From a virus, in the IMG/VR virus record IMGVR_UViG_3300050015_000878, positions 20,924 to 84,923 of that record: DNA of 64,000 nucleotides; one strand, written 5' to 3'. Below are positions 5,617-39,878 of the stretch, one piece after another. The stretch's first letter is position 1. The number at the start of each line of letters is the position of its first letter. A program made the translations under genes and the position numbers. The notes below the pieces were generated by a model. It made no database searches, had not been told where the DNA came from, and saw nothing but the letters and a program-made list of their open reading frames with translations.

Positions 5617-8600
5617 TTATTGTTGTTTAGGTGGAAATTTTTTAATATATGCTGCATTTAATATGTCTGATTCTGCTTTTAATATGCCATTCATATATGT
5701 TTGTTGGTTTTCTGCTTCTTTCCAAGGTCTGTTGTATAATCCCTCTGATGTAAAGTTTGAATTAGCATAATAGTTAAATGTAATAGCATTCTGTAAAGCA
5801 TCAATTGGTCCTTTGAGTGACTGACCACCAATAACTTTCATTTGTAACGTTACTTTTGCTATCATTGGTTGCATACCAAAACCTTCGGGGTTCATATCCC
5901 AAGTAGTTTCAGCATAGTCAATGCTCAGGTTTTCAATAATAACCTTAGTAAAGAAAAAGTCACCAACTCTCAATATACATACAGGTTGTCTACCAAAAAC
6001 TGAATTCTTTGCTCTTGGAATTCCAGCTTCATCAACAACATCATAACGTTTTGCAGCTCCCTGTCTCATACATTGCTGTAAGAAGGTCAATCTCTTATGA
6101 AAATCTTCTGGTGTTTGAGTATGAAAAACAGGATTATAATAATTGCTTTCAACAGACTGAAAACCTTTCTGCATTGCAGCATCCTCTTTACGAACACTCA
6201 TAACACACTGACTCGCATTATTACTGTTCTGTGACTTAACAAGCGGTTGATTACTTGCACGTAATCCCGCAACAATTACTGTATCGGGATAAGAAAGCGG
6301 TGGAATCTTCTTGGGTGGTGCTTCTCTCGTTCTCCTAAATTCAATTGTAGCATAACGCTCTTGTGTGGTTGCGGGAAGTTCAAGTTTAGCCTCAATTTCC
6401 TTTTGGGTTTTACCTGATGAGTTTGCAGGATTAGCACCTGTTGCACCCACACTATCTATGCTAATTTGTATACTGCTAATATCTTCGCCAGGAAATATGG
6501 CTTCAAGTCTACCTAATACAATTTGTCTTGCTGCCTGTGCTCTTCTTCTGCCAAGCATATAATTATAGCCAGATTTACTGTCATTTAATTTAGAAGCTGC
6601 TCCGACTATTTTAATACCAAACATTCTTCTATTACCGACAGGCTTAAACAATTCGTTGAGTTTTTTATCTAAAGCACTTTTAACACCAACATAATTATAT
6701 TGTGAAAATCCGGGTGGTAATAAATTCTTATCAAGTACTGGTGGGTCTGTTTTGGTCATACCTGTAACAAAGAATATGTCTTGATTAAACCCCGAACTAA
6801 TAACTTTTTTTTGTTGTCTACTACCCGGCATAATTTGATATTCATAATCCAAATACATAGTATCAACTATCTGAGAACTTTCACTTGCATCTTTAGGTAA
6901 GTCATTAGGAAATACCATTGTTACTGGTTCGGGTATTGTAACTTCAGGTTCAGGAGTATCAACAGGACCAGTAATTTGCTCTATATGGTCGTCATTGACT
7001 CTTTGTTTTTGAGCAGGATTTTCTAATATTGGAGCAGGACTATATGGGTCACCACCAAATGCGAAAAATTCTGCAATTGCACGATGTTTATCAGTACCTT
7101 TATATGTGGCATTTTTCAACTGTTGTGGATAGTCAATAAGCATGGTAAAGTTCAAAGTAGCTGACCTTTCACTGTGCATGTAGTTATACATTGGTTCGTT
7201 TCTGCCAACCATAACAGTCTTGTCAAAGTTTGATTGCGTACTTTCGTTTATTTCGAGATTATATGGTGGAAACCACATAAGTCTGCCATTAAACTGTCCA
7301 ACTTCACAAATAGGTATCTGTGAACCATACTCATCGTCAATAATACCAACACTGTCTTTACTAATAACTCTAACTGCAAGGTTTTCAATTGAAAACATTA
7401 AATTACGATTATTTGGTTGGTCCGAACTGCTTTCGTGCGGTGGTAAGGTAGGGTGAATTCTTGGCATTACTCTGTCATAAATTACTGAGTTCTCGTTGCC
7501 ACCATAAACATAGTTACCTTCGAATCTGATTGCTTTGGCAAATCTATCGTATTGGTCAAGCATAGAATGCTGTCGCACACCTGTAAGACCTGCAGTTTCC
7601 GCATTCATTGCATAATCACTGTCATTAGCCACCCACAAACCAGAGCCGTTAAAACCAACAATGTTTTTATTTTTATTTTGAAATGCTTTTCTTGTAATGT
7701 CAACGACTGCACCATCACTGGCATTAAGTAAGTTACGTGTATATTCAAGCAATCCCGAATATGCACGAAAACTAACATTTCTTTGATTTGTTGGATTTAC
7801 CTGTTCGTCTGCATGATTTGAAGTACCTAATAATTTATTAATATTATCACTTGCATTAGGTGATATTCCATTCATACCCCAAACAAGTTTATTACTTACT
7901 GCATCATCACCAAATTCGTCTGAAGTATTAATCCATTCATTTGCGGTTTCACTTAATTTAAAACCGTTTACTTCTTTAAATCTGATGTTTGCAACACCAA
8001 AGTTTTTTTCTACAAAGTCTGCAGTAGGAGCATACTCTTGAGTATTATTTGAATCTAATTCCAAAGTATTTAATGCAAACGAAGTTGCCGTATTTGCCTG
8101 ACTAATACTATCATCACTTGGCAAAATATTGCTATATGGATTGGTTTTAAAATAGTTAAAGTAACTTCTATAATGACTAAGCGGAGCATTAACTAAATCA
8201 CTTCTTAATAATAATTGAGTGTCTGCAAATCCCTTACCACTATATTGAAGTAATGCCTTATCGTCCAATATGCTCTGACCAAAATACTCTGAACTTGCAA
8301 ATCCTTGTTTATAAACGTTATTATTTAAAGCTGAATATAAAAATGAAAGTTGTCCCGTACCACTATTTTTAATATAATCGGCTTCGGTAGAATTCGGAGT
8401 AAAAGGATAATCAACAGCAGGAAAATAATATACTACAGCATTAAGAAAACTTTGAAAGTTTGATATTGCTGGTTTTTTTGTAATTCTTACGTCTAACCTC
8501 TTGGTAAATAGGTGAGTATTCTTAGCACCGTCAAATAAGTTTGAAACCTTTATAACAGGAAAATTCTGTTGTGCAATATGTGAACCTGCGTTCATTGCAA

Positions 8601-34526: not shown

Positions 34527-34824
34527 TATCGAAGAACGAGACAATCTTATTCAGTTAATGCAAGAAGCGTTGAAATTCTATGCAGACCCAACCAATTATA
34601 TTGGTCCAATGGGAACTATTGCACCGATTTATTCTGATGATTATGGCTCACAAGCACGTTTTGCTTTAGAAAAGGTTAAACAATTAAATGAGCAAAATCA
34701 GAAAATTCAAGACGATTACGACAAACTTATATTGGAAGCAGAAGAACTCGAATCTACAGGTGAAACAAGTCCTTTGGACCTAATTAACATATTTATACAA
34801 ACCCGTGATGATAAAAACGTTTAA
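34519..34824 (+). CDS. Hypothetical phage protein (101 aa)
   Basis: MNSIEERDNLIQLMQEALKF followed by YADPTNYI, and YSDDYGSQARFALEKVKQLN: the A-L-x-x-Y-A-D ... D-x-G-x-x-A-R-x-A-L pattern is common in small phage proteins of unknown function. A coiled-coil tail follows. It overlaps both its neighbours and is probably early. Confidence 0.72.
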   Translation: MNSIEERDNLIQLMQEALKFYADPTNYIGPMGTIAPIYSDDYGSQARFALEKVKQLNEQNQKIQDDYDKLILEAEELESTGETSPLDLINIFIQTRDDKNV

Positions 34825-35044
34825 AGAATATCAGCAAGAAGCAAATTTTCTCAAAATATCTTTGGATAGGTTTCTTGAGAAATATCCCGACTTGCCTGCA
34901 GACGTAATTCTTTTAATGAGAGTTACTTACGATGGTTTAGGACTTGGTGAAGCAGGTGAAGTACAGGGTAAAATCAAAAAGATTATTCGGGATGATGGTG
35001 GAAAAATAACACCTGAACATATTGAAGCAATTAAGGGTACGTGA
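34808..35044 (+). CDS. mazG: MazG-like nucleotide pyrophosphohydrolase, N-terminal part (split gene)
   Basis: Starts at ATG 34808 (MIKTFKEYQQEANFLKI). The chain follows the MazG family through YDGLGLGEAGEVQGKIKKII (the E-x-x-E metal-binding region) and then breaks off after EAIKG: two codons later ACG-TGA ends the frame. The missing continuation ELSDILWYISSICDTLG is present, in frame, 1.5 kb downstream at 36534. MazG enzymes hydrolyse (d)NTPs to (d)NMPs plus pyrophosphate. The break coincides with the end of the TnpB element. Confidence 0.85.
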   Translation: MIKTFKEYQQEANFLKISLDRFLEKYPDLPADVILLMRVTYDGLGLGEAGEVQGKIKKIIRDDGGKITPEHIEAIKGT

Positions 35045-35047
35045 ACA

Positions 35048-35072
35048 GTTCGGTTAAATCTACAAAAATCTA
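35048..35072 (+). repeat. Left end inverted repeat of the TnpB element
   Basis: 25 nt beginning GTTC and containing AAATCTACAAAAA. It is the reverse complement, at 19 of 25 positions, of 36506-36530. Confidence 0.75.
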
Positions 35073-35180
35073 TTAAAACCTATGAAAATCTATGGACGAA
35101 ATAATTTTAATAAAAACTGATATTTTTAATTAATATATACTATTTATAAAAGAGTATTAAAATTACCCAATTAAATTAAA

Positions 35181-36518
35181 ATGTTGAAAGCAATTAAAAT
35201 TAGACTTTATCCGAACAAAACTCAAAGTAGTTATATAAATCGTCTATGTGGTTCATATAGAAAGGTATTTAATATGTGTTTGGAAAAAAAGATAAGTGCT
35301 TATAACAATGACAAGACAAGTCTGGGATTAAAGGAATTAGGAAATTATTTTCATCAGGACTTAATTAAAAAAGAAGAATTTTTATATCTCAATGAGCACA
35401 ACACCAAAGTATTAAAACAAACAATCATAAATTTACTTGATAGTTATAAAAGATTTTTTGTAAATGGTAATGGTTTCCCCAAATATAAATCAAAACATGA
35501 TAACAATCAGTCAGCGAGATTTCCGCTGGAAGCAATATCAAAATTAAATAGTTATTCTGATAACAAGATAACATTAGGCAGACCATTAAAAAATATTAGT
35601 TTTGAATGTTCTAACAGAGATAAAAATTATTTAACAAATCACAAAGATAAAATCAAGTCAGCAACCATAAGTAGAACAAAATCCGATAAATACTTTTTAT
35701 CTGTTCTTATTGATAATATAATTGAAAAACAAATACCAGAACCAACTAATGATATTTTAGGTATTGATATTGGTATAAAAGATTTTATGGTTTGTTCTGA
35801 TGGTCAAGTGTTTAATAACTTGAAACTTAAACGTAATAATGAAAAAACATTAATTAAATTACAAAGACAATTAAGTAAAAAACAATTAGTTGGGACTGGT
35901 GAATATCGGTTAAATAAATATGGTAATAAGGTTGAAATAAATAAACCTTCAAACAATAGATATAAAGCAAGAGTAAGACTTGTAAAATTTCAAGAAAAAT
36001 TAAATAATATAAAAATAAATTACATACATAACATTACAACTCAATTAGTTCGTGAGAACCAAACGATAGTTATTGAGAATTTAAATGTTAAAGGTATGTT
36101 AAAAAACCATTGTTTGGCAAAATCAATTCAAGATTTAAGTATCAACGAGGCATTCAGACAGTTAAAATACAAATCTGAATGGTATGGAAGAGATTTGATT
36201 ATAATAGACAGATGGTTTCCTTCGAGTAAATTATGTAATGTTTGTGGTTATAAGTATAAGAATTTATCATTAAAAGAAAGACATTGGACTTGTCCAGACT
36301 GTGGGACACAACATGATAGAGATTATAATGCGGCAACAAATATTATGAAAGAAGGAAAGAGATTGATAGGGACACGTTATCCCGAATTTACGCTTGTGGA
36401 CTATCCAACTATGGATGACAGACTCAGTAATGAGGTACTAAAAAGTAGTGATAGGTTGAGACAAGAAGAAAAAAGTACAAATAGTGAACGAAGTGAACTT
36501 CGTACTAAGTTTTTGTAG
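35181..36518 (+). CDS. tnpB: TnpB RNA-guided nuclease (OrfB), intact
   Basis: 445 residues. The N-terminal HTH starts MLKAIKIRLYPNKTQSSYIN. The RuvC-type sites are all visible: ILGIDIGIKDFMVCSDG (first Asp), QTIVIENLNVKGML (Glu) and CGTQHDRDYNAATNIM (last Asp). The zinc finger is LCNVCGYKYK with WTCPDCGTQHD. A basic C-terminal tail ends near a hairpin (CGAAG-TGAA-CTTCG, about 36489-36502) in the region where the omega RNA scaffold would lie. All catalytic residues are present, so the nuclease should be active. Its only visible mobility partner is itself. Confidence 0.93.
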   Translation: MLKAIKIRLYPNKTQSSYINRLCGSYRKVFNMCLEKKISAYNNDKTSLGLKELGNYFHQDLIKKEEFLYLNEHNTKVLKQTIINLLDSYKRFFVNGNGFPKYKSKHDNNQSARFPLEAISKLNSYSDNKITLGRPLKNISFECSNRDKNYLTNHKDKIKSATISRTKSDKYFLSVLIDNIIEKQIPEPTNDILGIDIGIKDFMVCSDGQVFNNLKLKRNNEKTLIKLQRQLSKKQLVGTGEYRLNKYGNKVEINKPSNNRYKARVRLVKFQEKLNNIKINYIHNITTQLVRENQTIVIENLNVKGMLKNHCLAKSIQDLSINEAFRQLKYKSEWYGRDLIIIDRWFPSSKLCNVCGYKYKNLSLKERHWTCPDCGTQHDRDYNAATNIMKEGKRLIGTRYPEFTLVDYPTMDDRLSNEVLKSSDRLRQEEKSTNSERSELRTKFL

Positions 36519-36530
36519 ATTTTTTTGAAC
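36506..36530 (-). repeat. Right end inverted repeat of the TnpB element
   Basis: 25 nt ending in GAAC, overlapping the tnpB stop codon. Its core TTTTTGTAGATTT pairs with the left-end core, so the two ends of a transcript could anneal. Confidence 0.75.
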
Positions 36531-36533
36531 GGT

Positions 36534-36677
36534 GAATTATCTGATATATTATGGTATATCTCATCAATATGTGATACACTTGGATTAAAAATGGAAGATG
36601 TTGCCACATATAATATCGAAAAATTAAAGTCCCGTAGAGATAGGGGAGTATTACATGGCAGTGGTGATAATCGTTAA
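36534..36677 (+). CDS. mazG: MazG-like pyrophosphohydrolase, C-terminal part (split gene)
   Basis: 47 codons and TAA in the frame that continues the N-terminal part: ELSDILWYISSICDTLGLKM, the conserved E-x-x-D-x-x-x-Y helix of MazG, then KLKSRRDRGVLHGSGDNR, the typical family ending (R-x-x-R-G-x-x-x-G-x-G-D-N-R). No start codon of its own is evident. The sequence is undamaged, which means either a recent insertion or removal of the element from the mRNA. Confidence 0.85.
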   Translation, partial: ELSDILWYISSICDTLGLKMEDVATYNIEKLKSRRDRGVLHGSGDNR

Positions 36678-36718
36678 AAAAATATTATTGTGTTTATTGA
36701 TTATTTCAATAACACCAA

Positions 36719-36727
36719 GTATTTATT
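36719..36727 (+). promoter_or_regulatory. Putative late promoter motif for the HNH gene
   Basis: GTATTTATT, 14 nt before ATG 36742. It lies within an otherwise early operon. Confidence 0.6.
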
Positions 36728-36741
36728 GTAAAAATAATACT

Positions 36742-37371
36742 ATGGTTGAAAAGGTATGTTTAAATTGTGGTGGTCAATATAAAGTAATTGACAGTCGAAA
36801 AGATAAGGCAAAATTTTGTTCAAAAGAATGTGCCAATATACAATTAAATGGTGAAAAAAATACTGTATGTACTGAATGTGGTGAATCGTTTCATTTAAAG
36901 GAATCGTCAAAGAGAAGATATAAGAGAACACAAGGTTATTTTTGCTCGACAAAATGTGTTGCAGATTTTAGAAAGAAAGCATATATAGGTATCAATAATC
37001 CTAATTTTAGAAATGCTGAAACAAGTAATGGCTATTTGCTTGAGCAATTACCTAAATTCGGAAGAATTAAATTACATCATAAAGTAGTGTTTGAGTATTT
37101 AAACATCAATGAAATACCACACAATTATTGTATTCACCATAGAGATTGTCAAATTAATAACAACGACAAAGAAAATTTGGCACTATTAACAGGAAGCGAC
37201 CATAGATGGTTACATAAAAATTTTGGCAATGCAACTTTATGGGCATACGTAAATAACAGAATATCTCTGAAAGAATTGTGTAGTTGGTGTAAAAATCCCG
37301 AAAAGGCTATGAAATTGTTACCATTTAACATTATAACACAAAAAGAATTAATTATATATGAAAACAGTTAA
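36742..37371 (+). CDS. HNH endonuclease with N-terminal zinc fingers
   Basis: 209 residues from ATG 36742 (MVEKVCLNCGGQYKVID). Two Cys4-type fingers open the chain: CLNCGG with FCSKEC, and CTECGESF with FCSTKC. The HNH site is IKLHHKVVFEYLNINEIPHN, then YCIHHRDCQINNNDKENLAL. The longer frame from 36655 is rejected because its first 29 residues overlap the end of mazG and the late-type motif. Its last 14 nt overlap the start of dut, which suggests insertion exactly in front of dut. Probably a free-standing homing endonuclease. Confidence 0.85.
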   Translation: MVEKVCLNCGGQYKVIDSRKDKAKFCSKECANIQLNGEKNTVCTECGESFHLKESSKRRYKRTQGYFCSTKCVADFRKKAYIGINNPNFRNAETSNGYLLEQLPKFGRIKLHHKVVFEYLNINEIPHNYCIHHRDCQINNNDKENLALLTGSDHRWLHKNFGNATLWAYVNNRISLKELCSWCKNPEKAMKLLPFNIITQKELIIYENS

Positions 37372-39587: not shown

Positions 39588-39878
39588 ATGGGTGACAAAA
39601 ACTTCAAGCAAATCGGCAAATTTCAGTTTTCGGTAGAAGTGCCTGTAGATTCTGATTTGGCACTTGCTATCAGACTTGCTACTGAAAGACGTGATAAAAA
39701 ACTTGAAGATTTTGTTGAGTTTATAAAATTGGGTGCAAACAGGGATGACAAGGATAAGATTCTTGAAAATCTTGACGGTATACTCAAAATGAACGAGAGC
39801 ATTAAGCTAATGGAAGATGCAGCTATTGCCGTGAGAATGTATAAACTTGAAGAACAGAAAAATAAAAGTGTTGAATGA
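39588..39878 (+). CDS. Hypothetical protein (96 aa)
   Basis: Starts 4 nt after thyA. MGDKNFKQIGKFQFSVEVPV leads into helices rich in charged residues (LAIRLATERRDKKLEDFVEF; KMNESIKLMEDAAIAVRMYK). ATGA overlap with the next gene. No recognisable family. Confidence 0.68.
   Translation: MGDKNFKQIGKFQFSVEVPVDSDLALAIRLATERRDKKLEDFVEFIKLGANRDDKDKILENLDGILKMNESIKLMEDAAIAVRMYKLEEQKNKSVE

What the first reader, a model, noticed from the sequence alone, without database searches (positions are those of the whole stretch)
34808..36677. TnpB element sits precisely inside mazG and leaves both halves undamaged
Seen: removing 35039-36533 fuses EAIKG to ELSDILWY in frame, recreating a complete MazG of about 124 residues; neither half has a frameshift or stop other than the one in the element. 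The insertion is in the conserved metal-binding helix region, the kind of site that introns and inteins favour. TnpB keeps all RuvC residues and no TnpA is present. Either it is a recent insertion that kills mazG, or the element is removed at RNA level (IStron-like) and TnpB works as its homing nuclease. The second would be a notable phage system.
Basis: partly seen in the sequence, partly recalled or inferred. Interest (0 to 1): 0.78.

Follow-up and report, generated by a model that had tools for sequence, protein, structure and literature searches.

The report
Jumping gene interrupting a phage gene
A small mobile element carrying a predicted RNA-guided DNA cutter has jumped cleanly into a nucleotide-cleaning gene of a very large bacterial virus and most likely breaks that gene; nothing found here suggests that it is spliced out again, so this is a well-preserved example of a known kind of element.

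Summary
A 1,495-nt tnpB-only element (35038-36532) splits mazG of a jumbo phage; removal restores an intact 124-residue MazG. The empty site is real: 78 of the 79 best related viral loci carry mazG unbroken across it; the closest (93% aa) has the same junction codons apart from one synonymous base. The ends follow the IS607 rule: GG at both junctions, GGG on the left, T after the right-end GG in 22 of 22 ends recognised among 45 copies, imperfect inverted repeats. Sister elements carry an IS607-type serine-recombinase tnpA, and the 299-kb sister genome holds a cognate tnpA elsewhere. The 3' end of tnpB encodes a covarying RNA scaffold (97.2% of cells paired, 12 of 19 pairs with changes on both sides), fitting a guide RNA whose guide is downstream mazG. 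No intron was found at E<=10, while the same search finds T4's nrdB intron; only 157 nt lie outside tnpB, against 482 nt for the smallest IStron surveyed; sister elements also sit antisense in genes. Best reading: a recent, gene-disrupting IS607-type insertion whose TnpB targets the empty mazG site at DNA level.

The parts
34808..35044 (+). mazG 5' part (codons 1-77), then one Thr codon and a stop (TGA 35042-35044) from the element; 78 aa from ATG 34808 or 79 aa from GTG 34805
   Evidence: (PHROG MazG-like, E 7.7e-8)
35035..35037 (+). GGG at the left junction: GG crossover core plus probable TnpB target-adjacent motif (inferred)
   Evidence: GGG in 14 of the 15 left ends printed (not in L007, GACGG); GGG motif of IS607 ISXfa1 TnpB in PMC10711439 (passages)
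35038..36532 (+). the whole IS607-type, tnpB-only element (1,495 nt; equivalent to 35039-36533 because GGT is shared by both junctions)
   Evidence: empty sites
35045..35075 (+). left arm of imperfect AT-rich inverted repeat (31 nt, 74% complementary to 36503-36533), overlapping 10-bp subrepeats 35056-35094
35137..35149 (+). promoter-like ATACTATTTATAA upstream of tnpB, similar in several sister elements (function inferred)
35181..36518 (+). tnpB, 445 aa, RuvC D196/E299/D381 and zinc ribbon present
36364..36533 (+). predicted guide-RNA (omega/reRNA) scaffold, encoded in the 3' end of tnpB up to the right end; includes the T at 36533
   Evidence: 4 helices, 97.2% of 360 cells paired, 12 of 19 pairs with changes on both sides, 19 sequences
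36503..36533 (+). right arm of the terminal inverted repeat, ending AACGG|T
36534..36553 (+). predicted guide segment, i.e. the start of the downstream part of mazG (inferred)
   Evidence: sequence; guide position by analogy with PMC10711439 (passages)
36534..36677 (+). mazG 3' part (codons 78-124 and stop)
   Evidence: (Pfam MazG 24.1 bits)
36742..37371 (+). neighbour, not part of the element: free-standing HNH endonuclease gene downstream of mazG (ORF listed from 36655, overlapping the mazG stop; 36742 is a later ATG and my choice of start)
   Evidence: HNH_3 21.1 bits, below its cut-off; PHROG HNH, E 6.6e-13

Best explanation
It is an IS607-type, non-autonomous transposable element that has kept only tnpB, inserted at a GGG site in mazG of a jumbo phage. 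Shown by sequence: boundaries, empty sites in relatives, IS607-type ends, conserved TnpB residues, a covarying RNA scaffold up to the right end, a cognate tnpA in the sister genome. Inferred: a serine recombinase TnpA acting in trans put it there; the insertion breaks MazG (a stop follows 77 MazG residues, the two conserved acidic stretches are separated); TnpB with its guide RNA, whose guide is read from the downstream mazG half, cuts phage genomes that still have the uninterrupted site next to a GGG-like motif, so that repair copies the element back or in. It is a DNA-level retention or homing element, not an intron.
For: Precise junction and empty sites. GG core; GGG in 14 of 15 left ends printed; T after the right GG in 22 of 22 recognised ends, 23 of 45 examined copies having no end recognised by that filter, as described for IS607 (PMC10711439 and PMC4227781, passages read). 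Five of five tested genes upstream of sister tnpB genes are MerR-HTH plus Resolvase proteins. In the 299-kb sister genome a tnpA (L300:1398-1985) is 59% identical to that of sister element L056. RNA scaffold covariation with shuffled and slid controls. A second copy in the same genome interrupts hsp20 in the same clean way.
Against: No expression, cleavage or mobility data. The closest empty sites (L204, L205, L207) read AAAGGT, not AAGGGT, so if GGG is strictly needed they may be poor targets. The orphan tnpA ends differently from its relatives at the C terminus, so its activity is uncertain. About half of the related copies have no recognised ACGG end. One of the five covariation measures, further pair types, is no better than shuffles (19 against 19.4), and the window's RNA alone folds only modestly better than shuffles (z -1.55).
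Confidence: 0.85

Rival explanations
1. IStron-like element: a group I (or II) ribozyme in the element splices it from the mazG mRNA, restoring MazG, with TnpB as the mobility nuclease.
For: Sits inside a conserved gene in sense orientation; halves intact, no raised rate; insertion rule AGGG...CGG is the same as for IS607-type 'group B' IStrons (PMC4227781, passages); 6 of 8 copies with an assignable interrupted ORF are sense.
Against: No intron match at E<=10 although the control intron is found; 157 nt of non-coding DNA against an IStron size range of 482 to 2582 nt; antisense copies in L007 and L047 and, by right flank, L010; the covarying RNA at the 3' end is explained as a guide-RNA scaffold.
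Confidence: 0.03
2. The element is a decayed or immobile relic and mazG is simply a pseudogene.
For: No tnpA at the locus or in the own record; tnpB-only.
Against: tnpB open with its conserved residues; RNA scaffold pairs kept; mazG halves not decayed: dN 0.039, dS 1.03 against the closest relative, no excess of own amino-acid changes (3, against 5 in L205 and 0 in L204).
Confidence: 0.1
3. MazG works as a split protein made from two fragments.
For: Both fragments remain open.
Against: By eye the C-terminal piece has no good start (TTG 36525 lies inside the element's right end, ATG 36594 is inside the domain); the split falls inside the domain. No precedent was looked for.
Confidence: 0.02

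Closest known systems
IS607-family insertion sequences (e.g. ISXfa1; PMC10711439, passages read)
   Same: GG crossover core, GGG target motif, fixed right-flanking nucleotide, TnpB with a right-end RNA scaffold; sister elements here carry the IS607-type serine recombinase
   Different: This copy lacks tnpA; in the scans run, its close relatives lie in viral contigs
Group B (IS607-type) IStrons and the tnpB-only ISBth15 (PMC4227781, passages read)
   Same: Inserted after AGGG, ends in CGG, AT-rich inverted repeats, tnpA missing, sits inside a gene
   Different: No group I intron found; 157 nt of non-coding DNA against IStron sizes of 482 to 2582 nt; sister elements occur antisense in genes. ISBth15, listed there as an IS, is the better match
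TnpB gene drive of IS200/IS605-type elements on plasmids (PMC11870625, passages read)
   Same: Guide taken from the insertion flank, so that empty copies of the same site are cut
   Different: Shown for plasmids; here the carrier is a jumbo phage and no activity was measured
Free-standing and intron homing endonucleases of phages (HNH, GIY-YIG; general knowledge)
   Same: Spread by cutting uninvaded alleles of conserved phage genes
   Different: RNA-programmed instead of protein-read target; disrupts the gene instead of sitting beside it or being spliced

Membership tests
IS607 family | GG dinucleotide at both junctions, no other target duplication | tested here: met
IS607 family | Fixed nucleotide after the right end | tested here: met
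   T in 22 of 22 ends recognised by a filter that does not require it; 23 of 45 copies not recognised; L067, L068 and L069 are one insertion
IS607 family | Serine-recombinase TnpA with MerR-type HTH in the element | tested here: not met
   Absent from this copy and from its 85-kb record; present in 5 of 5 tested sister-element genes and in the 299-kb sister genome. Hence filed as a tnpB-only, non-autonomous IS607-type element, a described state (ISBth15, PMC4227781), not as a complete IS607 element
IS607 family | AT-rich imperfect terminal inverted repeats | tested here: met
   (31-nt arms, 74%)
TnpB RNA-guided nuclease system | RuvC D-E-D and zinc ribbon | tested here: met
TnpB RNA-guided nuclease system | Structured guide RNA at the right end | tested here: met
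   Structure supported by covariation in 19 copies; that it is made and bound is not testable here
TnpB RNA-guided nuclease system | Guide-directed cleavage of the empty site | not testable with these tools
   needs a cleavage or interference assay
IStron | Group I intron (IA2) at the 5' end | tested here: not met
   size argument and PMC4227781
IStron | Splices from the host mRNA | not testable with these tools
   needs RT-PCR; sister antisense insertions argue against it for the family

The most novel reading that the evidence does not exclude
A clade of IS607-type TnpB elements that appears centred on phages works in jumbo phages as RNA-programmed homing or gene-drive elements: each new insertion into a conserved phage gene (mazG, hsp20, a DNA methyltransferase, a Band_7 gene) at once programs the nuclease against the uninterrupted allele of that gene in co-infecting phages, so the element can be kept even where it breaks the gene.
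Probability: 0.4. Interest if true: 0.6.

Novelty: new member of a known kind. Interest (0 to 1): 0.33.

Why it matters
It is a clean, apparently recent IS607-type tnpB insertion with sequenced empty alleles in relatives. One of them (L204) bears the same IMG/VR dataset number (3300050015) as L002, a record that matches this phage's second genome in the stretches seen. That makes phage-to-phage homing by TnpB directly testable: the guide, the target and natural target variants are in hand. It also warns against reading a restorable frame as a sign of splicing.

Tried and rejected
Intron reading: Rfam with curated thresholds on the whole window and at E<=10 on 34700-36900 gave no intron. The curated threshold also misses the T4 nrdB intron, so, and the absence of introns in the eight sister loci, mean little; the E-value mode finds the T4 intron.

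Orientation test for splicing: 14 joined insertions were looked at (window; L008 and L007; 11). Six are sense inside an ORF (window, L008, L004, L056, L059, L067), two antisense (L007, L047), and six I could not assign (L006, L062, L064, L065, L074, L080). Of these six, L064 has a long sense frame and L062 a long antisense frame open across the join, which I judged by eye not to be the genes. L010 (right flank only) is antisense. Only four interrupted genes have a Pfam family across the junction: MazG, HSP20 and MethyltransfD12 (sense) and Band_7 (antisense); four joined proteins (L004, L056, L047, L067) and the L010 flank have none. Six against two is no significant bias. Most left ends were found with a pattern that requires GGG, so GGG conservation is partly built in; five copies and L007 were read by eye.

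Selection test: dN/dS of the halves is low, but dS to the closest relative is about 1, so most divergence predates the insertion and the test cannot tell recent insertion from continuing function.

RNA alignment: of 24 right ends considered, L034 had no right end; L031 (partial) and L007, L047, L077 (by eye without the first hairpin motif) were left out; 19 were used. The dropped ones would lower the paired percentage if forced in.

No structure prediction was run. The main paper on IStron against guide RNA conflict (PMC11758368) is not held and is known to me only as a reference-list entry and from recall.

Full report
What is there. At 34808-36677 a mazG gene is split by 1,495 nt that carry tnpB (35181-36518, 445 aa) and little else: 143 nt before and 14 nt after the ORF. 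Joining the flanks restores a 124-aa MazG in frame and raises the Pfam MazG score from 24.1 bits (C-terminal half; no Pfam match for the N-terminal half) to 34.6 bits across the junction. The upstream half as it stands ends with Thr-stop supplied by the element, before the second of two conserved acidic stretches (GEAGE ... GELSD; that these bind the metal in MazG enzymes is recalled, not tested).

The empty site. A scan of viral contigs with the joined MazG found 101 relatives and kept 79 distinct loci; in 78 one match runs unbroken over the site and only this virus's own second record is interrupted. The closest, L204 (93% aa), L205 (89%; the same contig as L014), L206 (82%) and L207 (77%), read AAA GGT GAA where this phage has AAG GGT GAA, so the boundaries are right to within the shared GGT. 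The same insertion without a mismatch is in the 299,144-nt record IMGVR_UViG_3300050014_000823, which matches the window at 99.9% over 12.4 kb with one 13-nt gap elsewhere.

What kind of element. Sister copies give one rule: the left flank ends in GGG (14 of 15 ends printed, partly chosen by a GGG pattern), followed by T (C in L067) and an AACAGTTC..AAATCT-like stretch; the right end is a T-rich tract, ACGG, then T (22 of 22 ends recognised without requiring T; 23 of 45 copies not recognised). This is the IS607 pattern: recombination between GG dinucleotides, a GGG motif for the TnpB of ISXfa1, and a fixed right-flanking nucleotide that belongs to the RNA scaffold (PMC10711439, passages read); and insertion after AGGG, TGGG or GAGG, ending in CGG, with AT-rich inverted repeats for IS607-type elements (PMC4227781, passages read). 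Five of five tested ORFs upstream of sister tnpB genes are MerR-HTH plus Resolvase proteins. The sister genome carries a lone tnpA of this kind near 115 kb (59% identical to that of L056; its last residues differ), next to a second tnpA-tnpB pair whose TnpA is 37% identical to that of L056. Five TnpB matches lie in that genome: the mazG copy, one in an hsp20 gene that is restored in the same way, and three more. So the mazG copy is best seen as a tnpB-only element moved in trans.

The guide RNA. The last 130-170 nt before the right end were aligned in 19 copies. RNAalifold, not told any structure, finds four helices; counting gives 97.2% of 360 cells paired, 12 of 19 pairs with changes on both sides, 62 such cells against 18.3 in shuffles (0 of 500 as high), and collapse when the partners are slid by one column (36.5 and 39.0% paired); the number of further pair types is not above shuffles. 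In several copies the tnpB frame stops before part of this stretch while the sequence goes on (L066, L072, L074), so the constraint is at least partly on RNA. The sequence after GG-T would be the guide: the mazG 3' half. Over 20 nt after GG, L205 differs from it by one base and L204 by two, but both have AAAGG instead of AAGGG in front.

Why not an intron. Rfam at E<=10 finds no intron in the element, and the identical search finds the ORF-bearing T4 nrdB intron (E 6.9e-7). The element has 157 nt outside tnpB; the surveyed IStron sizes run from 482 to 2582 nt, the most reduced copies lacking both ORFs (PMC4227781, passages). Copies of the same family lie antisense in a Band_7 gene (L007), in another ORF (L047) and, by the right flank, in a third (L010). 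Sense copies are six of the eight assignable among 14 joined insertions, no meaningful bias. What remains for splicing is only that the halves are intact, which a recent insertion explains as well: window against L204 dN 0.039, dS 1.03; L204 against L205 dN 0.055, dS 1.18; three own amino-acid changes in this lineage against five in L205 and none in L204.

How it most likely works. Shown: anatomy, empty sites, IS607-type ends, conserved TnpB residues and RNA structure. Inferred: trans-mobilisation by TnpA, loss of MazG activity, and TnpB-guided cutting of uninterrupted mazG so that repair keeps or spreads the element, as reported from experiments for TnpB elements on plasmids (PMC11870625, passages read). 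No second MazG was found in the 299-kb record (the record may be incomplete).

Literature. None of the titles listed by the paper searches names this element; I make no claim that such phage elements are undescribed.

Noticed in passing
36742-37371; L014 5243-6000; L204 3460-4119; L015 5994-6010: The gap after mazG looks like a hotspot: this phage has one kind of free-standing HNH gene there, L014 and L204 have another HNH-like ORF (by eye; its family not searched), and L015 has nothing between mazG and the next gene.
   Followed up: partly
L300 (G001:113500-121500), right end near L300:5828: A clearly different TnpB (377 aa) in the same phage genome shares a right-end sequence GATTTATTTTAACGGT with sister element L004, as if ends or guide-RNA tails were exchanged between TnpB lineages.
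   Followed up: partly
L032 around 7107-7124: A reading frame resembling GIY-YIG proteins (by eye) runs into the last ~80 nt of a tnpB element's right end, a possible chimera of a homing endonuclease gene and an IS607 right end.
   Followed up: no
L035 around 2438-2455: Remnant of an element: a few tnpB codons joined directly to the right end inside phage sequence.
   Followed up: no
window, 26 places (e.g. 31350, 36719, 44682): GTATTTAT occurs 26 times against 6.0 expected (0 of 100 shuffles as high); possibly a phage promoter motif, and the elements carry a similar motif before tnpB. Its position relative to genes was not tested.
   Followed up: partly
39701-39713: The sister record lacks 13 nt here, inside the small ORF 39588-39878: the only difference over 12.4 kb.
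   Followed up: partly
L009, L051, L075, L078, L083, L094: A subgroup of related tnpB copies has no recognised ACGG end but a shared (A/G)C(A/C/G)GAACTAT-like sequence downstream of tnpB, perhaps another end type.
   Followed up: no
L056, L066, L081, L050 upstream of tnpA: tnpA-bearing sister elements seem to carry a further small ORF (about 70 aa) before tnpA, of unknown function (read by eye).
   Followed up: no
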